Shown: piece by piece, positions 32,821 to 64,000 of the stretch
Position numbering within the stretch: position 1 is the stretch's first letter
How the letters are laid out: each line of letters begins with the position of its first letter
IMG/VR virus record: IMGVR_UViG_3300031718_000109
Span: 1-64,000 of that record
Origin: a virus
Strand: one strand, 5' to 3'
DNA: 64,000 bases
Made by a program: the position numbers and the translations under genes
The notes under the pieces: generated by a model
What the model saw: only the letters and a program-made list of their open reading frames with translations
Databases searched by the model: none
What the model was told of the DNA's origin: nothing

Positions 32821-33033
32821 CTACAGGTCATAGTCGTCAACCGGCTCAAACTCCGTGTACACCAAAGTCCGTGCCACCCAGCCCTCATCAGTGGGCAGCA
32901 CATAGCCGCCGCCGGTGAGCACCGCGCCGTGCCGCAGCTTCACCGTGAGCCCCGCGCTTTCACACGCAGTTAACGCGGCGGCCACCCGCTCCAGCAGGTG
33001 GGCGGTGACCGCCGCGTTAGGCCGCTTAGGCAT
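32821..33033 (-). CDS. small protein between portal fusion and protease
   Basis: The 70-residue product starts at an ATG overlapping the end of the portal-fusion gene by eight bases. It is a small alpha/beta protein (LLERVAAALTACESAGLTVKL then a Trp-containing strand). Function unknown. Confidence 0.55.
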   Translation of the reverse strand: MPKRPNAAVTAHLLERVAAALTACESAGLTVKLRHGAVLTGGGYVLPTDEGWVARTLVYTEFEPVDDYDL

Positions 33034-36000
33034 CCCGGATGGTGCGCAGCAGGGCGTTCATGCTGCCGTGCAACTCATCACGCACCGCCGGGTTGTCCCG
33101 CAGATCCCCGGGGTTCCACCACGCCAGAGCTTCAACCTGGTCTCCGTCCGGGTCATCAGGGTTCGTCACCTGGTCGCGCCCGTCATGAATAGGGACATCC
33201 GTCTCATGCGCCACCGTCAGCGTGAACACCTGATAAACGCCGTTGGTGGAGGTGAACCCCAGCTTGAGTTCACCGTCCGGCAGGTGGCAGCCGGTTTCCT
33301 CCTGCCACTCACGGCTTGCGGCGTCAGCAGGGTGCTCACCCTCATCCAGGCGCCCGCCCGGCAGCTCCCAGGAGCCGCCAGCCGGGTCATCCTCCGTAAG
33401 AGCGCGCTGCAACATCAGCACGCGGCCGGTGTCCTTGGCGACGACTGCGAGTCCGGCGGCTGCCGGGCCTACTGACTTGTTGGCCGGGTCTGCGCCTTGG
33501 TGCACCTGGTAGGAGTGGGTTTCATCCCATGGGCCGCCGTTGGAGTCCACGAAGCCGACGTAGGCCATGTACGGCACCCCGGCCTGCTTGGCGGCCAGGT
33601 ACCGGTGATGACCGTCGATGATCTTCACTTCGGTTTCGCCGGGCTCCTGCACACAGATCCCCGGCTTGACCGGCTTGCCCCTCTTGAGGAGGTCAGCGAA
33701 GTGGGCGACACGGTCCGGCTGGTGTGACGCGGCCCACGTCTTGACGCCGCCCACATCCACCCGGTCCACAGCAACCTGGACGGGGCCGATCCAGCGGGTG
33801 TCATCCACCCACTTCAGAGCCTTAGCCGGGAAGTTATCCAGCATCAGGTTCTTCACATGCACCGCGTCCACCGGGTTAGGGTCACCCGGATCAGACGCAC
33901 CCTTGACCGCGCCGGGCGGTGAGGAACTACCCGGCTGCCCGGTACCCAGGCGCGCCATAGACGGCGCACCACCAGCCGGTCCGCCGCCCTGAGCCGCCGG
34001 AACACCCCGGCCTGGCGGCATCTCGGCATCATCCTCATCCGGCGGCGCGGTACGCACCCGGCGCCTAGGCTGCGCGCCGTCCCAACGCGGCGGCTCACCC
34101 CCCGCAGTAGACCCCGGCACACCACCCGGAACTTCAACACCGTCCACGTCATGCGCCGGAAGCACCCGGCCGCCGCCACCGGCAGCAACCTGATACTGCG
34201 TCACCTGACCGGACCCGGGCGGATCCACCCACACCTCCTGCCCGTTCAGTTCAACCCGCCGCGTAGCCTTAGCCACCAGGATCGCCTGCTCAACAGTCAG
34301 ACCCTTGGTCACGTCCTCATCAATAGACATAACCATCGCGGAATCAATATGACGTGGCCTCCAAGACGCAATGTCCCGGCCCTTGCGGTAATGCCGGGCC
34401 AGCGCAGCCAGCTCAGAATCCACCGCCCGGGACTTAGCCCACGCCGGGACCAGCTGAGCCACCACGTCTGCGGACACGTCCACCGGCTCCACGCTGACAC
34501 CGGGGTACCCGCCGCCCGCACGGATCTCCTGGTTAGCCAGATCAGCCACATCCTGACGGATCTGGTCCCGGGTCATAGCCCGCATACCCGCATCCGTAGG
34601 AATGTCCCCCAGGTAGTCAGCGCGCGCCGCCGCCGCGTCCTGCCGCATAGCAGTGATGTCATCCAGCTGCTGCCGGTAGTAGCCGGTAGCGTCCGGCAGC
34701 TGCGTGTTACTGCCCCACAAAGACGGGGAACCCGGCTCCACATACTCCAGAGAGCAGTGACAGTTGGGGCCGCCCGCGCACTGGCCGCCGAAGCCTCCGT
34801 CACCCGGGTAGCCGGGCAGGGAGTGGAACGTGTACACCTTGCCGTCCCGGTCAATACACGGCTTGCAGTGCTCCGCGTTCCCCAGATGCCAGATGATGCC
34901 GTACTCCGGGTTGGAGGCCTGCACGGTCTGCCCGAACGCCTGGTTGTAGGCGCCCGCAACCGTGTTCTCATACGCCGTCAACCTAGAGTTGAGCCAGTCC
35001 GTGCCCACCATGTTCAGTGCCGTGTACAGCAGCACGGACAGGAACGCCTGCTGGTTGTTAGCCCTGGTCTGCGCCGCACCGGACACATCGATCGGGTTGA
35101 CATCCGGATAGTCATTCGCCGCATCATGTGACGCCGCGTGCATAGCCTTTGCGTACCCGTCCGCCAGCACCCCGGTAGCCGCCGTCATAGCCGCCATATG
35201 CGTGATGTTCCCGGCCTGGTACTGCTCCACCGTGGAGCGCAGCGTGGAACGCACATGCGCCGCCGCCGCCAGCACCCGGGTGCTGCGCCGGGCCTGGTGC
35301 GCCGCCTGGAACTTACTGATCTGCGGCGCCGCCACCTTCCCGGAAGACGCCGGAGCGGAAGACGCAGACGGCTTACCCGCCGCGTTGGCTGCTGCTTCAG
35401 ATGCTGCGTGCCCCGGAGACTGCCCGGCGTTACCGGACGGCTTCCCGGCAGGCTTAGCGCCCGGCTTGGCGGGCGCGGGCTTAGCACCGGGCTTAGCCGG
35501 GGCTGCGCCTGGCGGGGTGGCGGTAGCGGGGGTGTTGGCGTCCGGCTGCTGCCCCGGGGCTGCCACGCCGGTAGTGAGCATCTGGCCCAGGGGAATGAAC
35601 CCCTGCATCGTCGCCCACCCCGGGTCAGAAGTTTCCGGCAGGCCCCACGGCTGCTTCCCCAGCGCCTCGCGGCCTTCATCAATGGAGGCGAGGCCTGCGC
35701 CGATTTGGGAGACCAGGAGGGTGGTGAGGGTTTCCTCGTCCTCATCCTCCTCCAGGCCTTCAAACGTGAACTGCATGTCTTCCTGGCCGCACACGTCCTG
35801 GAGGATCATGTTGAAGATAGAGGCCAGGAACTCCAGGGTAGGCTTCGTCGCTTTCCGCTCGTGAATACCCTGCGTGGCTTTTGCCATCTGGTTGGACGCG
35901 CCGGGGGAGACGGTGGAGGAGACCTTAGGCATGATGCCCAGCTCCATGGGCTGCACACTGAACGCCATGCAAACCTGGTTCATGACGATTTCATCGAACT

Positions 36001-37225
36001 GGTCTGCCAGCTCAGCTGGCTTCTGTGGCATGACCTTTGAGTCCGGAGGCAACACAATGATCTTGTGCTTCTGTGCTACATCCCCAGCCACCGCGTTCAA
36101 CGCGGACTGCAACTCCCGGATCTGATTAGGCGTCATCTGGTTAGCCGCACCCGGAGACACAAACATCCCCGGAATAGTGCCCTCACGGAAGAAATCCAGC
36201 TGATAACCCTGCTTCTGCAAACCCGCCATCACCGGCACCAAAGCCTGCTCAATCATCGTGAACCCATACGGAGTCCACCGGCGCGGCGTAAACGGCCTAT
36301 AAATCAGCTGATCCCCACGGAACTCCTTACGCTGCGCATCAGACAGACCCGCCTCCAGCAGATCCCGCTCCGTCCACATCGTCGTCAAATCCGTACGCGG
36401 CACCCCATACAGGTACTGCTGGTACGCCGGAGCCGGAGGACGCGGACGCTCACCATGCAACCCCACCAGCGGCCGGATAGTAGGACCGTTGATCAAAGAC
36501 AAGGAGTCCAGGTCTGAGCCGAACAGGCCTTTGCCCTTACCGTTGCCCTTGGGGCTGCCGTTGGCGCTGCCCCACTTAGGGCGCATCAGGATGGACAGGG
36601 CGTCAAACACGAACACTTCCTCCAGCAGCACGCTGATGAAGGAACCCCAGTCGTCGTAGTCCGGGTCCGGGTGCTTGAAGAACTCCACCGCCTCCGCGCG
36701 GCGCTCGCCGAAGTCTTCCATGGCGGCGGTGTCTCCGCGCATCTTCTTGGAGGCGTCTTTGGTGGGGGTGATGTCCCAGGCCAGGCCACGGATTTCTGCT
36801 TTGCGCAGCTCAATGCAGGCGCGGGCTACGGAGTAGAGGTCTGCGAGGGTTTGGATGGTGCTGAATGACGCTAGCTTCAGGCCTTCTGAGCCGGGGGTGC
36901 CGACTGGCAGGTTCCAGCCGATGTCGTACTGGTACAGGCGGGGTTCTGCGCGGGTGGCGTCCGGGGACGGGGGCTGGTCTACCGGGACCGGCAGGATGGG
37001 GCTGAAGGGGCCGAAGGCGCCTGCGGTAAACGTGTTGGTGGGGCGGGGCAGGAAGCCGCCGTAGGCGTTGGCGTAGCCGGTCATGGAGCCGCCGGACTCC
37101 AGTTGCGCCTGGAGGGGGCTGATCATGCCGGAGTAGGCGCCCTGGGGTGCGGGGGTGGGGCGTGCGCCTCCGGGGTTCTGCTTGGAGAGGGGGGTCAGGG
37201 CTCGTGCGACGTTGCGGGCGGACAA
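33026..37225 (-). CDS. portal-MuF fusion with ParB-like and Nudix C-terminal domains
   Basis: This 1399-residue polyprotein-like gene starts at a TTG after GAGGGGG. Residues about 90-545 are the portal. A Pro/Ala/Lys linker (555-630) leads to a MuF-type head morphogenesis domain (about 635-830) with a Cys/His cluster (HCKPC at 786-790, CAGGPNCHC at 816-824). After a helical region and a disordered Pro/Gly part (1000-1115) comes a ParB-like domain with IIDGHHRYLAAKQAG near 1202. The end (1250-1399) is a Nudix hydrolase with a complete Nudix box: Gly1291, Glu1297, Arg1305, Glu1306, Glu1309, Glu1310, Gly1312. MuF-type proteins enter the host with DNA, so the two end domains may be injected effectors. 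Confidence 0.85.
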   Translation of the reverse strand: MSARNVARALTPLSKQNPGGARPTPAPQGAYSGMISPLQAQLESGGSMTGYANAYGGFLPRPTNTFTAGAFGPFSPILPVPVDQPPSPDATRAEPRLYQYDIGWNLPVGTPGSEGLKLASFSTIQTLADLYSVARACIELRKAEIRGLAWDITPTKDASKKMRGDTAAMEDFGERRAEAVEFFKHPDPDYDDWGSFISVLLEEVFVFDALSILMRPKWGSANGSPKGNGKGKGLFGSDLDSLSLINGPTIRPLVGLHGERPRPPAPAYQQYLYGVPRTDLTTMWTERDLLEAGLSDAQRKEFRGDQLIYRPFTPRRWTPYGFTMIEQALVPVMAGLQKQGYQLDFFREGTIPGMFVSPGAANQMTPNQIRELQSALNAVAGDVAQKHKIIVLPPDSKVMPQKPAELADQFDEIVMNQVCMAFSVQPMELGIMPKVSSTVSPGASNQMAKATQGIHERKATKPTLEFLASIFNMILQDVCGQEDMQFTFEGLEEDEDEETLTTLLVSQIGAGLASIDEGREALGKQPWGLPETSDPGWATMQGFIPLGQMLTTGVAAPGQQPDANTPATATPPGAAPAKPGAKPAPAKPGAKPAGKPSGNAGQSPGHAASEAAANAAGKPSASSAPASSGKVAAPQISKFQAAHQARRSTRVLAAAAHVRSTLRSTVEQYQAGNITHMAAMTAATGVLADGYAKAMHAASHDAANDYPDVNPIDVSGAAQTRANNQQAFLSVLLYTALNMVGTDWLNSRLTAYENTVAGAYNQAFGQTVQASNPEYGIIWHLGNAEHCKPCIDRDGKVYTFHSLPGYPGDGGFGGQCAGGPNCHCSLEYVEPGSPSLWGSNTQLPDATGYYRQQLDDITAMRQDAAAARADYLGDIPTDAGMRAMTRDQIRQDVADLANQEIRAGGGYPGVSVEPVDVSADVVAQLVPAWAKSRAVDSELAALARHYRKGRDIASWRPRHIDSAMVMSIDEDVTKGLTVEQAILVAKATRRVELNGQEVWVDPPGSGQVTQYQVAAGGGGRVLPAHDVDGVEVPGGVPGSTAGGEPPRWDGAQPRRRVRTAPPDEDDAEMPPGRGVPAAQGGGPAGGAPSMARLGTGQPGSSSPPGAVKGASDPGDPNPVDAVHVKNLMLDNFPAKALKWVDDTRWIGPVQVAVDRVDVGGVKTWAASHQPDRVAHFADLLKRGKPVKPGICVQEPGETEVKIIDGHHRYLAAKQAGVPYMAYVGFVDSNGGPWDETHSYQVHQGADPANKSVGPAAAGLAVVAKDTGRVLMLQRALTEDDPAGGSWELPGGRLDEGEHPADAASREWQEETGCHLPDGELKLGFTSTNGVYQVFTLTVAHETDVPIHDGRDQVTNPDDPDGDQVEALAWWNPGDLRDNPAVRDELHGSMNALLRTIRDA

Positions 37226-42918: not shown

Positions 42919-42969
42919 TTACCATCTTCCCGGAGCTATGCTACATTGCTCTTAGAGCGAAAGACGCTC
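42919..42969 (+). promoter_or_regulatory. promoter with 5'-terminal leader hairpin (copy 7)
   Basis: TTACCA is 17 bases before TACATT, with the TGC extension. GCTCTTA is followed immediately by the hairpin GAGCG-AAAGA-CGCTC (42955-42969), so the predicted start base is the first base of the stem. GGAAGGAG follows, before the ATG at 42988. Confidence 0.87.
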
Positions 42970-42987
42970 ACCCGGAAGGAGCAAACC

Positions 42988-43185
42988 ATGGCCAGCATCA
43001 AGTGCGGCTGCTGCGGCGAGACCCACACCAGCGTCCAGGAAGTCAAGGACTGCTACACCGACGTTCGCATCCAGCTGGAAGAGGCCCGCTCCGAGGCGGC
43101 AGCCGAGCGCGCCAACGACCACGCCATGACGTTCGGTTCCGCCTACGCGCAGATGGCCAGCTACCAGGACTACATCAACAACTGA
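42988..43185 (+). CDS. small zinc-finger-like protein
   Basis: The 65-residue product begins IKCGCCGETHTSVQEVKDC, a Cys/His cluster nearly identical in pattern to the start of the 3911 protein. The rest is helical (IQLEEARSEAAAERAND). It lacks the second zinc ribbon of its longer relative. Both have the same promoter and leader hairpin type. Confidence 0.66.
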   Translation: MASIKCGCCGETHTSVQEVKDCYTDVRIQLEEARSEAAAERANDHAMTFGSAYAQMASYQDYINN

Positions 43186-47738: not shown

Positions 47739-47807
47739 CGCGCCGTCCTCCATCGCGGAGTAGAAGGCCGCATCGCGCAGCCCGACTACCCCGGGATGCT
47801 ACCAGGG

Positions 47808-47878
47808 AAGCGGAGACGGGGTTCGAACCCGTGTGCACAGCTTTGCAGGCTGCTGCCTCACCACTCGGCCACTCCGCC
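47808..47878 (-). tRNA. tRNA-Cys (GCA)
   Basis: Acceptor GGCGGAG/CTCCGCT, anticodon arm GCAGC-CTGCAAA-GCTGT and T-loop TTCGAAC are all present. CCA is not encoded in full. Confidence 0.92.
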
Positions 47879-47881
47879 GCG

Positions 47882-47963
47882 TACGCCCGGTGGGAGTCGA
47901 ACCCACACGCCACTAGGGCAACGGCTTTTGAAGCCGTCGCGTCTGCCATTCCGCCACAAGCGC
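47882..47963 (-). tRNA. tRNA-Leu (CAA)
   Basis: Class II tRNA: acceptor GCGCTTG/CGGGCGT with wobble pairs, anticodon arm ACGGC-TTCAAAA-GCCGT, a long variable arm and T-loop TTCGACT. Only four bases separate it from the cysteine tRNA. Confidence 0.92.
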
Positions 47964-47964
47964 G

Positions 47965-48036
47965 TGGACGTTGCAGGGATCGAACCTGCGACCTGCGCCG
48001 TGTGAAAGCGCTGCTCTCCCGCTGAGCTAAACGTCC
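47965..48036 (-). tRNA. tRNA-Val (CAC)
   Basis: Acceptor GGACGTT/AACGTCC, anticodon arm GCGCT-TTCACAC-GGCGC and T-loop TTCGATC. It abuts the leucine tRNA with one base between. Confidence 0.92.
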
Positions 48037-48169
48037 AAGAGCGTGGGGAAGGACTCGAACCTTCCCCACCCAGGGCTTAGCCGAACCTACCCAAGTAGCG
48101 ACCCTGGGGGCACTCGGCAGGCTATGACACACCTGGATGACCGGTCGATCCTTGCAGACCGGCACACGC
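48037..48169 (-). ncRNA. candidate Ro-associated Y-like RNA with a tRNA-like T-arm
   Basis: Between the proline and valine tRNAs lies about 130 bases that do not fold as a tRNA. On the - strand the ends pair 6 of 7 (GCGTGTG with CCCACGC). Inside are a hairpin CCGGTC/GACCGG, a stem CCAGGG/CCCTGG enclosing a D-arm-like GCTAC-TTGG-GTAG piece, and an unusually long 10-bp T-arm GTGGGGAAGG-TTCGAGT-CCTTCCCCAC (48044-48070). Bacterial Y RNAs of the YrlA type carry a tRNA-mimicking module with such arms, and this phage encodes a Ro-like protein. The assignment is a hypothesis; a degenerate tRNA is the alternative. Confidence 0.35.
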
Positions 48170-48170
48170 G

Positions 48171-48242
48171 TCGGGACGACAGGATTCGAACCTGCGTGGT
48201 CCTGCTCCCAAAGCAGGTGGGCAACCTCTACCCCACATCCCG
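48171..48242 (-). tRNA. tRNA-Pro (TGG)
   Basis: Acceptor CGGGATG/CGTCCCG, D-arm GGGT-AGAGGTT-GCCC, anticodon arm CCTGC-TTTGGGA-GCAGG and T-loop TTCGAAT. Confidence 0.92.
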
Positions 48243-48364
48243 AAACTGCTGGGCCCGCTACTACGGGTACAGGGATCTTGCCCGGGTACTTGCCCACCGC
48301 GCAGGCGTGTTCACCGAGTTGGCCTCCCTGCCCGCCGGGTAAGGGTTCCGGCGGCCACCAGCCG

Positions 48365-48437
48365 TGGAGACTACAGGCTTCGAACCTGCGACCTTCTGGG
48401 TGCAAACCAGATGCTCTACCAACTGAGCTAAGTCCCC
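48365..48437 (-). tRNA. tRNA-Ala (TGC)
   Basis: Acceptor GGGGACT/AGTCTCC, anticodon arm TCTGG-TTTGCAC-CCAGA and T-loop TTCGAAG. The 120 bases between it and the proline tRNA hold no tRNA; I see only weak hairpins there. Confidence 0.92.
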
Positions 48438-48539
48438 TACACACCGGTCACGGCGGACACCGGCAAGACCCCCGGGGAAAATCGACGTTCCCCGGGAACA
48501 GGCCCCTGCGGTTTCGAGGACCGCAGCAACCCACCACCG

Positions 48540-48613
48540 TCGGGATAGCAGGACTCGAACCTGCGACCTCCTGGCCCCCAGCCAGGCGCGCTACCAGACT
48601 GCGCCATATCCCG
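48540..48613 (-). tRNA. tRNA-Pro (GGG)
   Basis: Acceptor CGGGATA/TATCCCG, anticodon arm CCTGG-CTGGGGG-CCAGG and T-loop TTCGAGT. The spacer to the alanine tRNA contains hairpins CCCGGGGAA/TTTCCCCGGG and TGCGGT/ACCGCA. Confidence 0.92.
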
Positions 48614-48703
48614 GTGCTGGCTGCTTTGAGGGGGGTACCAATTCCTCTCCGCTTTCTCCTGTACGCGCGTACCCGCCAGGGATTGGCCCACCAGCGGACC
48701 GCG

Positions 48704-48777
48704 TGGCCAGGGACGGGATCGAACCGCCGACCTACCGCTTTTCAGGCGGTCGCTCGTACCAACTGAGCTACCTGGCC
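48704..48777 (-). tRNA. tRNA-Phe (GAA)
   Basis: Acceptor GGCCAGG/CCTGGCC, anticodon arm ACCGC-CTGAAAA-GCGGT and T-loop TTCGATC. The spacer to the proline tRNA (48614-48703) is closed by GCTGG/CCAGC and CCAAT/ATTGG pairs. Confidence 0.92.
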
Positions 48778-48781
48778 AAGC

Positions 48782-48856
48782 GTCACCGTCTCTGTTTCAT
48801 GACGAACATTCCTGCGCCGCGCACCCGGATCTCCCGGGCAACCATACGACGGTGAC
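48782..48856 (-). ncRNA. structured inter-tRNA element A
   Basis: A 75-base element on the - strand is closed by a perfect 9-bp stem (GTCACCGTC/GACGGTGAC). It holds a hairpin CCCGG-GAGAT-CCGGG and, near its 3' end, TTCG...CATGAAACAG. Elements B, C and D share this plan. Confidence 0.5.
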
Positions 48857-48859
48857 ACG

Positions 48860-48933
48860 CTCCCCCACCTGGACTCGAACCAGGGACACCTCGGTTAACG
48901 GCCGAGTGCTCGTGCCAACTGAGCTACAGGGGA
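48860..48933 (-). tRNA. tRNA-Asn (GTT)
   Basis: Acceptor TCCCCTG/TGGGGGA, anticodon arm CTCGG-CCGTTAA-CCGAG and T-loop TTCGAGT. Confidence 0.92.
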
Positions 48934-49007
48934 TCAAGCGGGCCGTTTTTGGTTAGGGTCATGCCCAGGACCCGTACCAGCAGCATCCAGGAGGCTGCCG
49001 CTGGCCG

Positions 49008-49081
49008 TGCGCGCCGGAGGAATTGAACCTCCGACCTGCTGCGTATCAGGCAGCTGCTCTCACCAACTGAGCTAGACGCGC
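49008..49081 (-). tRNA. tRNA-Ile (GAT)
   Basis: Acceptor GCGCGTC/GGCGCGC, anticodon arm GCTGC-CTGATAC-GCAGC and T-loop TTCAATT. Confidence 0.92.
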
Positions 49082-49196
49082 TGGAGCCGTAGACAGGCCA
49101 ACCTGCATTTGTCGTCCCAGGCAGCTTGTTTCCACCTGAGAGGCAACCCGCCGTCGCGGACCTTCGCGGTTTTCAGCCGCACTCTCGACCTACAGC
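49082..49196 (-). ncRNA. tRNA-like structured element ending in CCA
   Basis: A 7-bp closing stem GCTGTAG/CTACGGC is followed by T and then CCA, directly against the isoleucine tRNA. Inside is an anticodon-like arm GCGG-CTGAAAA-CCGC (phenylalanine-type loop) and a T-arm-like CAGG-TTGG-CCTG with a loop of only four bases. There is no D-arm and the middle is too long (115 bases in all). It may be a decayed tRNA or another kind of tRNA-like RNA. Confidence 0.4.
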
Positions 49197-49197
49197 G

Positions 49198-49279
49198 TGG
49201 CAGGAGCAGGATTCGAACCTGCGTGGCTTTCGCTCTCGGTTTACAGCCGAGCCCTTTCGACCAACTCGGGCACCCTGCC
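49198..49279 (-). tRNA. tRNA-Tyr (GTA)
   Basis: Class II tRNA: acceptor GGCAGGG/TCCTGCC, anticodon arm CTCGG-CTGTAAA-CCGAG, a variable arm and T-loop TTCGAAT. Confidence 0.92.
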
Positions 49280-49283
49280 ATGC

Positions 49284-49363
49284 GGTAGCTCACCGCTGTT
49301 TCATGCACGATCGAATGGGGCGCGGTCCGGAGATCTCCTCCGGCACCATGGCGTTGAGCTACC
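49284..49363 (-). ncRNA. structured inter-tRNA element B
   Basis: An 80-base element closed by a perfect 9-bp stem (GGTAGCTCA/TGAGCTACC). It has the hairpin CCGGAG-GAGAT-CTCCGG (49327-49343) and a 3' part TTCGATCGTGCATGAAACAG that matches element A. Confidence 0.55.
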
Positions 49364-49366
49364 AAT

Positions 49367-49449
49367 GAAGTGACACAGTGATCGAGCAAGGACCACAGTC
49401 GACGCAGCCCCGACCGGAGATCTCCTCCGGCTCCACTCCGTACCACTTC
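49367..49449 (-). ncRNA. structured inter-tRNA element C
   Basis: An 83-base element closed by GAAGTG/CACTTC, with the same hairpin CCGGAG-GAGAT-CTCCGG (49414-49430). Its 3' part, TCGATCACTGTG, matches element D. Confidence 0.5.
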
Positions 49450-49450
49450 G

Positions 49451-49524
49451 CGGTCCTGACGGGACTTGAACCCGCGACCTCCACCTTGACAGGGTGGCGA
49501 GCACTCCAACTGCTCTACAAGACC
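49451..49524 (-). tRNA. tRNA-Asp (GTC)
   Basis: Acceptor GGTCTTG/CAGGACC, anticodon arm CCACC-CTGTCAA-GGTGG and T-loop TTCAAGT. The spacer 49525-49643 has three CCTTCG repeats but no tRNA. Confidence 0.92.
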
Positions 49525-49643
49525 ATGCGTAACCGTTGACACCCCGGAACGTCGTAGAGCTCAGCAGTGCACTACCAAGCCACCTTCGGACCAGAGTCAC
49601 AGCCTTCGCAGACGCACGGGAACCACACGCCTTCGGCTGATCG

Positions 49644-49716
49644 AGCCGTTGACGGGAGTCGAACCCGCTACCTCCACGTTGGAAGCGTGGCGCCCTGCCA
49701 GTAGGGCCTCAACGGC
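49644..49716 (-). tRNA. tRNA-Gly (TCC)
   Basis: Acceptor GCCGTTG/CAACGGC, anticodon arm CCACG-CTTCCAA-CGTGG and T-loop TTCGACT. Confidence 0.92.
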
Positions 49717-49718
49717 GT

Positions 49719-49796
49719 GAACCAGCACAGTGATCAACTCGGCTCCGTTACAAGCCTGTCCGGAGACGTCCCCCGGCTCTACGCCCGTACTGTTTC
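49719..49796 (-). ncRNA. structured inter-tRNA element D
   Basis: A 78-base element closed by GAAACAGTAC/GTGCTGGTTC (9 of 10 paired). The hairpin is CCGGGG-GACGT-CTCCGG (49760-49776), and TTGATCACTGTG near the 3' end matches element C. Confidence 0.5.
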
Positions 49797-49877
49797 GCTA
49801 GCACTAGGGGGACCGAACCCCTAAGCCCGTCGGCTGTCCGCCAGGACGTACCACCCACCGTTCCGCTACGTCCGCGC
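49797..49877 (-). other. aberrant class II tRNA-like locus
   Basis: On the - strand AGGGG-TTCGGTC-CCCCT is a good T-arm and AGCC-GACG-GGCT a good variable arm, but the anticodon arm (GTCC-TGGC-GGAC) has a four-base loop and no anticodon can be read. The acceptor strand AGTGCTA has no partner. Instead, a 7-bp inverted repeat GGACGTA/TACGTCC spans 16 bases at the 5' side. It is either a decayed tRNA or an RNA needing unusual processing. Confidence 0.4.
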
Positions 49878-49943
49878 ACCCTATGCGCAAGAGGTTGGGC
49901 GCGCCCAATAAAAACCTCGTAGCTGGGAAGTGACTCCCACTCG

Positions 49944-50016
49944 TGGCGGAGGTAGGACTCGAACCTACGGCCTCTGGGTTATGAGCCCAGCACGCTACCA
50001 ACTGCGCTACTCCGCT
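49944..50016 (-). tRNA. tRNA-Met (CAT), initiator-like
   Basis: The anticodon arm is CTGGG-CTCATAA-CCCAG, with the three G-C pairs next to the loop that mark initiator tRNAs. The first acceptor pair is a mismatch (A1 with C72) in AGCGGAG/CTCCGCC, also an initiator trait. T-loop TTCGAGT. An isoleucine CAT tRNA cannot be fully excluded. Confidence 0.85.
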
Positions 50017-57767: not shown

Positions 57768-57785
57768 TTTCAGCTCCTTCGCGGC

Positions 57786-57818
57786 GCCCGTACTTCGGGC
57801 TACATGAGTAGCATAGCA
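57786..57818 (-). promoter_or_regulatory. promoter with 5'-terminal leader hairpin (copy 9)
   Basis: On the - strand TGC-TATGCT (57810-57818) and ACTCATGTA are followed by the hairpin GCCCG-AAGTA-CGGGC (57786-57800), then AAGGAG and the ATG at 57767. Confidence 0.82.
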
Positions 57819-57826
57819 TAGGTGTA

Positions 57827-59587: not shown

Positions 59588-59734
59588 TCAGAACGCGTCC
59601 AGCAGTGCCCGCAGCTTGGCGACACCCTCGGCCAGTTCATCGCCGTAAGAGTCGTTGTCGATCTTCAGCCCGTCTGCGATGCAGTCGAAGCGCTCCAGGA
59701 TCTCCAGGGCCTCGCGCCGTGCGATCTCGTTCAT
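59588..59734 (-). CDS. small acidic helical protein
   Basis: The 48-residue product (NEIARREALEILERFDCIADG...) is helical and acidic. CAAGGAGG precedes the ATG. It has its own strong promoter and leader hairpin, so it is probably expressed at a high level; an anti-host role is possible but unproven. Confidence 0.58.
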   Translation of the reverse strand: MNEIARREALEILERFDCIADGLKIDNDSYGDELAEGVAKLRALLDAF

Positions 59735-59752
59735 GGTGTCCTCCTTGTCGGT

Positions 59753-59805
59753 GCCCGCCGTTCGGGCTATGTGAGTAACGTAGCATAGCCGATTGGGGAT
59801 GGCAA
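59753..59805 (-). promoter_or_regulatory. promoter with 5'-terminal leader hairpin (copy 11)
   Basis: On the - strand TTGCCA (59800-59805) lies exactly 17 bases before TACGTT (59777-59782), with the TGC extension. ACTCACATA is followed by the hairpin GCCCG-AACGG-CGGGC (59753-59767), then AAGGAGG. Confidence 0.87.
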
Positions 59806-59816
59806 ACCCCCAGGCC

Positions 59817-61000: not shown

Positions 61001-61783
61001 CTACCGGCCCTGCCCGTTCTCCCGCGCCCACTTGCGCAGGTCCGCATCCACCTTCTTGGCGGCCTTGGCCTGCGCCTGCGCGTAAATCTCCCGGCTACGG
61101 CCGTCCACGTCCGCCGCACCCTCCAGCCGCGCGATGGACCGCGCCAGCCGGATGGACTCCACCGCCCACTTGTCATGGTCCGGGTGCAGCTTGCCGTCCC
61201 GGCTGTACCAGTCCATGTCCCAGCAGCGGGACGCCAGCGCGTTACGGGCGCCGCGCTCCGTCTTCGGGGTATCCATGCCGACCTTCAGCGGCTCACCGTC
61301 GTCACCCCTGGGGGTCAGCGCGTCCTTCTCCGCCTTCGCCGCATCCTTCGCGGCACGCGCTTCCTGCTTCTGCGCCTCGCTCTTGCGCTCAGCCTCCCGG
61401 TAGGCCGGGTCCACCGGCGCCTGCGGGAAGCACACCGTGCACATCAGCGTCGTGTACTTGGCGATCATCTCGGTGACCGTGTTGCCGGACTCATCCGGCA
61501 GGAACGAACGCAACGTGTCGTGGCGCAGAGTCGAGCAGCCCTCGAAGTGCACGTGTCCGTCCGGGACCACGATGTACCGGGTCCAGCCGTACGCGGTGTG
61601 CAGGCCTTCCAGGGCGGTCAAGGCCTCATCCAGCGCGTAGCCCTTGGCGGTGGCGCGGTCCAGCTTGGCGCCGGTCTGCTCGGTCTTAACCATCGCGGTG
61701 CGCAGGCGGCGAACGCGGCCCAGTTCCATGGACAGTTCGACCAGCATGTTGTCGATCGCCTTGGGGTCTACCGTCTTGTTCAT
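61001..61783 (-). CDS. protein with coiled-coil linker and C-terminal zinc-like region
   Basis: The ATG at 61783 has GGAAGGAG upstream. The 260-residue product has a helical start (IDNMLVELSMELGRVRRLRTAMV), a middle with TRYIVVPDGHVHFEGCSTL and MCTVCFPQAPVDPAYREA (a Cys/His site), then a long charged coil (EAQKQEARAAKDAAKAEKDA). Single-gene unit with its own leader-hairpin promoter. Function unknown. Confidence 0.6.
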   Translation of the reverse strand: MNKTVDPKAIDNMLVELSMELGRVRRLRTAMVKTEQTGAKLDRATAKGYALDEALTALEGLHTAYGWTRYIVVPDGHVHFEGCSTLRHDTLRSFLPDESGNTVTEMIAKYTTLMCTVCFPQAPVDPAYREAERKSEAQKQEARAAKDAAKAEKDALTPRGDDGEPLKVGMDTPKTERGARNALASRCWDMDWYSRDGKLHPDHDKWAVESIRLARSIARLEGAADVDGRSREIYAQAQAKAAKKVDADLRKWARENGQGR

Positions 61784-61801
61784 CGTGTACTCCTTCCGGG
61801 T

Positions 61802-61834
61802 GCCCGTCGTTCGGGCTACATGAGTACTGTAGCA
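61802..61834 (-). promoter_or_regulatory. promoter with 5'-terminal leader hairpin (copy 13)
   Basis: On the - strand TGC-TACAGT (61826-61834) and ACTCATGTA are followed by the hairpin GCCCG-AACGA-CGGGC (61802-61816), then GGAAGGAG and the ATG at 61783. Confidence 0.82.
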
Positions 61835-61889
61835 TAGGCACGTGAGGAAGGGAAAGCCCTCGAACCTGACGGATCCGAGGGCCCACCCG

Positions 61890-62540
61890 CTAGAACGGCC
61901 AGGTACCGTTCCGAGCGTCATCCAACAGCGGGATGATCTTGAAGCTGGCGTCCGAGAGCCCACCGAACACATGCCGGTTGTCCTTACCCGACGGTGCCGA
62001 ACCCATCCGATAACCAGCCAAGTTCCATGTCAACACCGGAACATCCTTCGGCACCGCCGCGTACACGTCATGCGCCCCGTGGTACGCCGCCTGCTCATCC
62101 GTCAACACAATCACCCGGTCATGCGCCCGGTAATGCGACGCCACCGCCTGAGCCGTATACGTCCCACCCAACGCGGTGAACTTCTCCACCAGCCGCAGCA
62201 CCGAGTCCCCCTTACGGAACCCGACCTCCCGCGAGGAGGAGCCGAACTCCACCAGCGTCGCATTCGCCGCCCGCAACGCCAACGCGCTGCCGAACAGCGC
62301 CGCAGAATCCGCGCGGTTCAGCTGCGTCTTCTCCGACAGCCCACTGAACATAGACCCGGACCGGTCCACCAGGATCAACGTCCGGCCCGCAAGCTCCGGA
62401 ACGTTCGCCAGCGACCTGTTCAGCGCCTGCTCCAACGGCCACGCCCACCGCAACCCAGCGTTCTTATACGCCGCCAGGAACCGGAACGGGAACTGCCGGG
62501 ACGCCTTGATCTCCTCCGGATCCACCAGCTTACGGATCAC
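61890..62540 (-). CDS. Ro60-like protein, C-terminal vWA part (second gene of a split pair)
   Basis: Starting at the GTG that overlaps the TROVE-part stop (GTGA) gives 216 residues. The start (VIRKLVDPEEIKASRQFPFR) is the last helical repeat region of Ro proteins. The vWA domain has the MIDAS DRSGSM near residue 60, GGTYT near 130 and LTDEQ near 150, so its metal site is complete. In Ro proteins this domain closes the RNA-binding ring. The join lacks the roughly 12-15 residues normally between MALL and this region. Confidence 0.78.
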   Translation of the reverse strand: MIRKLVDPEEIKASRQFPFRFLAAYKNAGLRWAWPLEQALNRSLANVPELAGRTLILVDRSGSMFSGLSEKTQLNRADSAALFGSALALRAANATLVEFGSSSREVGFRKGDSVLRLVEKFTALGGTYTAQAVASHYRAHDRVIVLTDEQAAYHGAHDVYAAVPKDVPVLTWNLAGYRMGSAPSGKDNRHVFGGLSDASFKIIPLLDDARNGTWPF

Positions 62541-63436
62541 CGCGTCAGCAGCGCCATGTACCCCATGGAAGGGATCATCTTCTCCCACGCCTGGGCGTCC
62601 ATCTTGCCCTGCTTCCACCCAGCGGTAGCCTCCCACGTCATCCCGGCCGCGCGCAGCTTCTCCGCACCGTCCTCAGACGCCATCAGAGCGTCCTTGCCCG
62701 CCTGGTCCAGGCTGGTGAGCTCCTTGCGCGCGGTAACCGTCTTCAACCGCGCGGACGCCGGGTCCTCCAGATCCTCACGCCCGTGACGCCGGTCAATAGC
62801 GTGCTCAAACAGATCCCCCTGCCACGGCTTGTCCGCATCCGGCGCCGGGTGCACCAGCTCAATCACGTCGCCGATGCGCACGGCGTCACCCTGCGAGTCA
62901 TACTTCAGCAGGCTCCGCTCGTTCAGCAACCGGCGTACCGCGTCACCCACACCACGCTTCACCGGCTTCGGCAGCGCCTTGCCGTACTTACTGATCCAGT
63001 ACGCCACCAGCTCCGCAGGCTCATCCGCCCGCTGGCACGCCACATCACACACCTTGCGAGACGGCCCGGTGTCCATCCCCGGGGTCTCCGGGACCTTCGC
63101 ATCCAGGCGTGCCTTGACGAACTCCGCAGCAGCCACCAGGGAAGCCGAACGCATGTTCGCCTCCGCCCGCAGCCACGGAATCATCCGCATCACCCAGTCC
63201 GGGTCCTCCAGCGCGACCTGACGCACCAGCGCCTCAAACCGGCCGTCCCGATCCGACGCCGACTCATGGAAGGTGCTCTCGCCCACCATGTTGGTCACCG
63301 CAAGCAGAAACAGCTCACTCTTAGCGTCCCGGGCGAAACCCGGTGCCCCCAGCGCGGTACGGCCCGTGGCGGTGGTCTCCGTCTTCACCGGAGACGTCAC
63401 CTGCGGCGTGACGGTACTGCGGTTGAACTTACTCAT
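62537..63436 (-). CDS. Ro60-like protein, N-terminal TROVE (HEAT-repeat) part
   Basis: The ATG at 63436 follows GAGGGGAG and gives 299 residues. This is the TROVE ring-forming domain: ELFLLAVTNMVGESTFHES near 47, WVMRMIPWLRAEANMRSASL near 88, RADEPAELVAYWISKYGKALP near 145, LKYDSQGDAVRIGDVIELVHP near 185 and WEKMIPSMGYMALL at the end. Ro proteins bind misfolded RNA ends and Y RNAs. The frame stops after MALLTR, where related proteins continue into the vWA domain. It lies directly downstream of permuted tRNA genes. Confidence 0.8.
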   Translation of the reverse strand: MSKFNRSTVTPQVTSPVKTETTATGRTALGAPGFARDAKSELFLLAVTNMVGESTFHESASDRDGRFEALVRQVALEDPDWVMRMIPWLRAEANMRSASLVAAAEFVKARLDAKVPETPGMDTGPSRKVCDVACQRADEPAELVAYWISKYGKALPKPVKRGVGDAVRRLLNERSLLKYDSQGDAVRIGDVIELVHPAPDADKPWQGDLFEHAIDRRHGREDLEDPASARLKTVTARKELTSLDQAGKDALMASEDGAEKLRAAGMTWEATAGWKQGKMDAQAWEKMIPSMGYMALLTR

Positions 63437-63484
63437 CCTCTTTCTCCCCTCGTGAGGGAAGGGCACGGCGCAGGGATGGTGCCC

Positions 63485-63620
63485 GAGATCAAACCGGTGA
63501 TCGCTTTAGCGCTCTGCCGCTGAGCTACGTGGGACGAGGCCCCACGATGGGATTCGAACCCATGACCTCTTCATTAGCAGTGAAGTAAGCGAATCACAAC
63601 GCGCACCGGGCACCACCCCG
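63485..63620 (-). tRNA. permuted tRNA gene 4 (GCT anticodon arm in the leading 3' half)
   Basis: Read on the - strand, the 3' part comes first: anticodon arm CTTCA-CTGCTAA-TGAAG (63569-63585), variable AGGTC, T-arm ATGGG-TTCGAAT-CCCAT and acceptor strand CGTGGGG. After five bases comes the 5' part: acceptor TCCCACG (pairs 7 of 7), TA and D-arm GCTC-AGCGGCA-GAGC, ending at 63510. The leader GTGATTCGCTTA and tail TAAAGCGATCAC pair across the cut. The tail box TTTGATCTC is at 63485-63493. The break is between D-arm and anticodon arm. Confidence 0.75.
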
Positions 63621-63634
63621 ACGCTAACCCTCCC

Positions 63635-63736
63635 GAGATCAAAACGGCTCCGGGGTTGTCTGCCCCACAAGGGAGCTGACCAGGAATCGAACCTGGGTAA
63701 CCGAAGTACCCCGGAAAAACCACGCACCGGGAGGTG
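63635..63736 (-). tRNA. permuted tRNA gene 3, degenerate or 5' half truncated
   Basis: On the - strand a T-arm CCAGG-TTCGATT-CCTGG and acceptor strand TCAGCTCC (63671-63695 region) are preceded by the leader box (63718-63734). Downstream, after a hairpin-containing 19-base linker, only the acceptor partner GGAGCCG (63645-63651, 6 of 7 paired) remains, directly followed by the tail box TTTTGATCTC. There is no D-arm. It is a broken or unusual copy. Confidence 0.45.
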
Positions 63737-63757
63737 CTTAAAGCTTGGGGGGCGCCT

Positions 63758-63883
63758 GAGATCAAAGTGGACTCGGGGTAGTGAACTCTAACGCCCTACC
63801 AGCTGGGCTATACGTCCCGGAGGACATAACAGGATTTGAACCTGCGACCTTTAGAAGGACCCGATTCCGGCACACCAGGCACC
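63758..63883 (-). tRNA. permuted tRNA gene 2 (split in the anticodon loop)
   Basis: On the - strand the 3' half comes first: TCTAA (anticodon stem), AGGTC, T-arm GCAGG-TTCAAAT-CCTGT and acceptor TATGTCC (63822-63855). A four-base linker TCCG leads to the 5' half: acceptor GGACGTA (7 of 7 paired), TA, D-arm GCCC-AGCTGGTA-GGGC, G and TTAGA (63787-63817). TTAGA pairs perfectly with TCTAA. The anticodon bases lie in the outer flanks, so identity depends on the splice points. Tail box TTTGATCTC is at 63758-63766, leader box at 63868-63883. Confidence 0.78.
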
Positions 63884-63906
63884 GCTGTCAAACTGAAGTC
63901 CCGCCA

Positions 63907-64000
63907 GAGATCAAATTGGAGAGCGTAACCGTATGTCCTAGGCCGCTGGACGACACCAACCTTACGGCTGGCGGCGGGATTCGAACCCGCGTTCCACCTG
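63907..64000 (-). tRNA. permuted tRNA gene 1, partial at window end
   Basis: On the - strand the visible 3' part ends with T-arm GCGGG-TTCGAAT-CCCGC and acceptor CGCCAGCC, then a GTAA tetraloop and the 5' part: GGTTGGTG (8 of 8 paired with two G-U), TC and D-arm GTCC-AGCGGCCTA-GGAC. The tail continues to TTTGATCTC at 63907-63915. The rest of the 3' half lies beyond base 64000, so the anticodon is not visible. Confidence 0.65.

What the first reader, a model, noticed from the sequence alone, without database searches (positions are those of the whole stretch)
63485..64000. Cluster of circularly permuted tRNA genes with conserved leader and tail boxes
On the - strand four consecutive units place the tRNA 3' half before the 5' half. 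In units 1, 2 and 4 the adjacent halves have fully paired acceptor strands (CGCCAGCC/GGTTGGTG, TATGTCC/GGACGTA, CGTGGGG/TCCCACG) joined by only 4-5 bases (GTAA, TCCG, CCTCG). Unit 2 also pairs TTAGA with TCTAA for the anticodon stem. Reading the halves in normal order with their other neighbours leaves the acceptors unpaired. Each 5' half is followed within about 35 bases by TTTGATCTC (63485, 63635, 63758, 63907), and the visible 3' halves are preceded by a shared GGTGCC(C/T)GGTG(C/T)GC-like box; in unit 4 an 11-bp leader-tail helix bridges the cut. Permuted tRNA genes are known in some red and green algae and archaea and need circularisation and re-cutting. I know of no established phage example.
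Basis: partly seen in the sequence, partly recalled or inferred. Interest (0 to 1): 0.95.

Follow-up and report, generated by a model that had tools for sequence, protein, structure and literature searches.

The report
Tandem tRNA-mimic Y RNAs beside Ro60
The supposed permuted tRNA genes are a row of six Y RNAs, small RNAs that partner the Ro60 protein and imitate a rearranged tRNA; this is a known kind of RNA, but these and many relatives in actinobacteria and their phages also keep an anticodon arm that the standard model lacks.

Summary
On the - strand the units do place the tRNA 3' part before the 5' part, with paired acceptor strands joined by 3-5 bases, and TTTGATCTC lies at exactly the four stated places. 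They are not permuted tRNA genes. They are Y RNAs (YrlA-like) of a Ro60/Rsr ribonucleoprotein. The Ro60 (TROVE) gene starts about 40 bases downstream, two heads hit Rfam YrlA below threshold, and a covariance model built only from relatives finds six units in the contig (two lie beyond the window). The same arrays sit beside Ro60 in actinobacterial phages and Streptomyces-type chromosomes. Y RNAs are already known to be circular permutations of tRNA.

One part may be new. About half of the tRNA-headed units (two of this phage's) keep an anticodon arm, so the rotated RNA is a complete cloverleaf opened between D and anticodon arms. The Rfam YrlA consensus has no such arm. The triplet differs in most pairs of 90-95% identical relatives, "Ser" anticodons come with short variable loops, and the acceptor is a closed 7-9 bp hairpin: mimicry, not decoding. 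The contig's Ro60 frame is broken by a deletion (real or assembly error).

The parts
63478..63614 (-).
   Evidence: R1 92.3 bits, E 7e-23; MFE fold shows the anticodon arm, T arm and acceptor hairpin; Rfam YrlA 33.2 bits, sub-threshold
63628..63735 (-).
   Evidence: R1 38.3 bits, E 2e-8; fold
63751..63883 (-).
   Evidence: R1 86.5 bits, E 2e-21; Rfam YrlA 34.4 bits, sub-threshold
63900..64000 (-).
   Evidence: R1 48.9 bits truncated in the window, 95.5 bits whole
63907..63915 (-). TTTGATCTC box, the 3' strand of the conserved internal loop in the basal stem; the same in the other units at 63758-63766, 63635-63643 and 63485-63493. Units 2 (contig 64050-64190, anticodon loop CTACGGA) and 1 (contig 64218-64296, headless) lie beyond the window
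   Evidence: pattern count 4 against 0.13 expected; units outside the window
61890..63436 (-). Ro60/Rsr (TROVE + VWA) gene in two frames: N-terminal part 63436-62537, C-terminal part inside 62636-61890; reading frame broken near 62540-62560
   Evidence: PHROG 850 on both parts; PDB TROVE-domain chains on both parts; about 49 bases of L006 missing in the DNA alignment

Best explanation
The feature is a tandem array of six Y RNA genes of the YrlA type, directly upstream of and on the same strand as the phage's Ro60 (Rsr) gene. In each RNA the 5' and 3' ends pair into a long basal stem with a conserved internal loop (GGTGCGC opposite TTTGATCTC), where Ro60 most likely binds (inferred). In the tRNA-headed units the other end folds into a tRNA imitation: T arm, an acceptor stem closed as a hairpin, then D arm, in some units with an anticodon arm in front. 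The permuted order is the mature form, so no circularisation is needed. The likely job (inferred, about 50%) is that of other bacterial Y RNAs: the stem holds the Ro60 ring, and the head docks a partner that recognises tRNA-like RNA, such as PNPase or tRNA-modifying enzymes. Identity as Y RNAs is well supported by homology and covariation; expression, Ro60 binding and the partner are not shown.
For: Ro60 gene next door; Rfam YrlA sub-threshold hits with the same arm order; a model made only from relatives finds all six units; 20 of 32 pairs covary and every measure beats 500 of 500 shuffles and all slid controls; units found in 73 of 79 viral and 77 of 80 bacterial Ro60 loci; headless and tRNA-headed units share the same stem; bacterial Y RNA is a known circular permutation of tRNA (PMC11472068; PMC8394870).
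Against: Rfam YrlA gathering score is not reached (34 against 69 bits), nor in relatives. No expression or binding data. The Ro60 frame in this contig is broken, so the RNP may not form in this very genome.
Confidence: 0.93

Rival explanations
1. True circularly permuted tRNA genes, as in red and green algae: the transcript is circularised at the leader-tail helix and cut in the linker to yield functional, aminoacylated tRNAs.
For: Rotated units with an anticodon arm are called as tRNAs (107 of 107); D and T arms carry a weak signal of the same isotype as the anticodon (21 against 5.7 in shuffles).
Against: 57 of 81 relative pairs with 90-95% identity have triplets for different amino acids, and all 15 Ser-type triplets have 4-5 base variable loops. 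Positions 34 and 35 vary while 32, 33, 36, 37 and 38 are mostly fixed. Acceptor hairpins are mostly 7-9 bp, closed by 3-4 bases. About half the heads and all headless units have no anticodon arm. No RtcB in the contig. Ro60 is the constant neighbour.
Confidence: 0.03
2. The RNAs are Y RNAs, but their main role in the phage is to act as decoys: the tRNA heads, several with an anticodon loop, titrate host tRNA-cutting defence nucleases or other tRNA-binding enzymes.
For: Intact anticodon arms with canonical 7-base loops in about half the heads; several different heads in one array; a competitor role for YrlA against an anticodon nuclease was suggested by others (PMC7790460).
Against: Arrays and anticodon arms are similarly common in bacterial chromosomes (50 of 129 heads), so the role is not phage-specific; the triplet drifts; no nuclease is known here.
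Confidence: 0.2
3. Decayed remains of the phage's tRNA cluster, with chance pairing.
For: The phage has 13 ordinary tRNAs at 47806-50016; unit 5 is degenerate.
Against: Covariation far above shuffles; conservation across phages and bacteria; a six-unit array beside Ro60 also in the closest relative, L006.
Confidence: 0.01

Closest known systems
YrlA bacterial Y RNA (Rfam RF02553; Salmonella YrlA, PDB 6CU1)
   Same: Order T arm, acceptor hairpin, D arm; ends paired in a basal stem; encoded beside Ro60/Rsr; circular permutation of tRNA
   Different: Scores half the Rfam gathering threshold; about half the heads of this group add an anticodon arm in front of the T arm; arrays of up to six units
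Y RNAs beside Ro60 in actinobacteria and their phages (this group; recalled as part of Chen et al. 2014, RNA 20:1715, not readable here)
   Same: Same stem, same internal-loop boxes, same place next to Ro60
   Different: Six units in this contig, more than the usual one to three; Ro60 frame broken in this contig
Circularly permuted tRNA genes of algae and archaea
   Same: 3' part encoded before the 5' part; the rotated sequence folds as a cloverleaf
   Different: Triplet not conserved; closed 7-9 bp acceptor hairpin with a 3-5 base linker; stem shared with headless RNAs; Ro60 neighbour

Membership tests
Bacterial Y RNA, YrlA type | Gene beside a Ro60/Rsr gene | tested here: met
   Ro60 starts at 63436, about 40 bases after unit 6; same neighbourhood in relatives
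Bacterial Y RNA, YrlA type | 5' and 3' ends pair in a basal stem | tested here: met
   helices 1 and 2, 95-96% of cells paired, 10 pairs with two-sided changes
Bacterial Y RNA, YrlA type | Head with T arm, acceptor hairpin and D arm in that order | tested here: met
Bacterial Y RNA, YrlA type | Reaches the Rfam RF02553 gathering score | tested here: not met
   34.4 and 33.2 bits against 69; no hit in 18 actinobacterial Ro60 loci. So YrlA-like, not a formal RF02553 member
Bacterial Y RNA, YrlA type | Binds Ro60 | not testable with these tools
   needs pull-down
Circularly permuted tRNA gene | Rotated sequence is a cloverleaf with an anticodon arm | tested here: met
   units 2 and 6 of the array; not for units 1, 3, 4 and 5
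Circularly permuted tRNA gene | Anticodon conserved with the isotype | tested here: not met
Circularly permuted tRNA gene | Bulge-helix-bulge at the junction | tested here: inconclusive
   the consensus fold shows a long stem with an asymmetric internal loop and no evident bulge-helix-bulge, but no dedicated search was run
Circularly permuted tRNA gene | Circular intermediate and mature spliced tRNA | not testable with these tools
   no RNA data; no RtcB in the contig, but the host could supply one

The most novel reading that the evidence does not exclude
Y RNAs of actinobacteria and their phages display an entire permuted tRNA, anticodon arm included, with a loop held as CUNNUAA-like but a free triplet, to capture an enzyme that reads the anticodon loop (a defence nuclease, or a modification enzyme such as the t6A machinery), making Ro60 RNPs a trap for tRNA enzymes.
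Probability: 0.15. Interest if true: 0.7.

Novelty: new variant of a known kind. Interest (0 to 1): 0.42.

Why it matters
It settles that this striking array is a known kind of tRNA mimic and not a new class of permuted tRNA gene. It shows that Rfam misses, and tRNA finders misname, these RNAs in actinobacteria and phages (52 ARAGORN tRNA calls overlap such units in the loci studied). The retained anticodon arm with a drifting triplet gives a concrete, testable clue to what bacterial Y RNA heads bind, which is an open question.

Tried and rejected
DNA-level search for near phages gave nothing. Rfam at gathering threshold shows only the 13 ordinary tRNAs in the window and no YrlA in relatives. 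Single-unit MFE folding gives modest z-scores (-1.8 to -3.2), so the structure rests on covariation. The idea that each head is a specific tRNA kept for decoding was rejected because the triplet drifts. RtcB was looked for in the contig and not found. The core Y RNA papers (Chen 2014, Wang 2018, Sim and Wolin 2018, Sim 2020) are not held, so whether an anticodon arm has been described there could not be checked.

Full report
What is in the sequence. The window is bases 1-64000 of a 64,770-base viral contig with phage genes for a terminase, tape measure, endolysin and a portal/MuF-type protein. On the - strand, from 64296 down to 63478, six units lie head to tail. Unit 1 (64218-64296) has no tRNA-like head, unit 5 (63628-63735) a degenerate one, and units 2, 3, 4 and 6 full heads.

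What it is. The gene that starts at 63436, about 40 bases after unit 6, is a Ro60/Rsr protein: PHROG 850 on both parts, solved TROVE-domain chains on both parts, and Pfam VWA and TROVE just below their cut-offs on the 3' part. Rfam's YrlA model aligns to two of the heads in the order T arm, acceptor hairpin, D arm, at E about 1e-5 when a 601-base stretch is searched, but at half the gathering score. Bacterial Y RNA is known to imitate tRNA with a circular permutation (PMC11472068) and to consist of a Ro60-binding stem plus a tRNA-like domain (PMC8394870). The permuted order is therefore the expected form of the mature RNA.

Independent test. Fifteen units from other contigs, none from this one, were aligned. 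The consensus has 32 pairs, 20 of them with compensatory changes, and every measure exceeds all 500 shuffles and all slid versions. The model R1 built from them finds all six units here with 99.1, 95.5, 92.3, 86.5, 38.3 and 35.3 bits; the best place outside the array, in the ordinary tRNA cluster, reaches 20.4. R1 finds units in 73 of 79 viral loci and 77 of 80 bacterial loci around Ro60, usually one to three per locus (the alignments were capped at 150 matches each, so these are lower bounds, and the loci are not all independent). Sequenced phages of Streptomyces, Gordonia and Arthrobacter have them too. The closest relative, L006, also has six units; units 1, 2 and 6 resemble their counterparts here most (69, 78 and 75% identity).

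The anticodon arm. In the Rfam YrlA consensus there is no hairpin in front of the T arm. Here, units 2 and 6 and many relatives carry one. R1 contains no pairs in that stretch, so it did not select for it. In the R1 matches, 57 of 110 distinct viral heads and 50 of 129 bacterial heads have a 7-base loop with U33 and a purine at 37 on at least three loop-closing pairs, 4-5 bases from the T arm, against about 2 in shuffles with a maximum of 9 (a first set gave 18 of 31 against 0.65). Scanning the spacing gives a sharp peak at 4 and 5 bases, the variable-loop length of ordinary tRNA (37 and 69 heads; other spacings 9 or fewer). Rotated at the linker, all 107 such heads are called as tRNAs by ARAGORN and none of the shuffled ones (the set was chosen for having the arm, so this shows form and is no independent test). 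D and T arms alone carry a weak signal of the same isotype as the anticodon (21 matches against 5.7; the relatedness of the units inflates this).

Why not permuted tRNA genes. Close relatives change the triplet: 57 of 81 pairs with 90-95% identity have triplets for different amino acids (pairs share sequences, so they are not independent). Positions 32, 33, 36, 37 and 38 are mostly fixed (CUNNUAA), while 34 and 35 vary. All 15 Ser-type triplets have short variable loops. The acceptor stem is most often 8 bp and closed by 3-4 bases such as UCG or UUCG. Headless units share the basal stem. No RtcB was found in the contig, although a host enzyme cannot be excluded.

How it most likely works. Shown: homology, structure and position. 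Inferred: the basal stem with its conserved internal loop binds Ro60, and the head offers a tRNA-like surface to a partner, by analogy with the tethering of PNPase by Y RNA reported for Deinococcus (PMC7790460 and PMC8394870). The dominance of U36-A37-A38 would fit a t6A-type loop (own knowledge, untested). A decoy role against anticodon nucleases is possible, but the arrays are also common in bacterial chromosomes.

Caveats. The Ro60 frame in this contig is split: about 49 bases present in L006, including the codons of an invariant RNLRN motif, are missing near 62540-62560. This may be a real loss or an assembly error. No RNA data were available. That Y RNAs next to Ro60 were reported in more than 250 bacterial and phage species (Chen et al. 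2014) is recalled, not read here, and whether an anticodon arm was described there could not be checked. The novelty call rests on that uncertainty.

Noticed in passing
window 62537-62636: The Ro60 gene is broken: about 49 bases present in the closest relative L006, including the codons of an invariant RNLRN motif, are missing and the frame shifts. Real loss or assembly error is undecided.
   Followed up: partly
L023 3204-3275 (Gordonia phage VanLee) and other loci: Y RNA units are annotated or called as tRNAs: VanLee's 'tRNA-Arg(tct)' overlaps a Y RNA unit at L023 3202-3341, and 52 ARAGORN calls overlap Y RNA units in the loci studied.
   Followed up: partly
R1 matches in viral and bacterial loci (A3, A4): The anticodon-like loops are dominated by CUNNUAA, that is, triplets ending in U36 followed by A37-A38, the loop type of tRNAs that read ANN codons.
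   Followed up: partly
spacers between units, e.g. contig 64210 (- strand), L007 2791, L009 2726, L020 2898: A short motif like ACAACTTCA or TTGACAACTGCATA recurs between units in several phages; it may be a promoter or processing signal.
   Followed up: no
window 61774-61859, 59725-59810, 57774-57822, 42936-42990: Short dispersed repeats, 77-84% identical, within the contig.
   Followed up: no
window 33026-37225: A 1399-aa protein resembling portal/MuF fusion proteins of Arthrobacter phages at about 30% identity.
   Followed up: no
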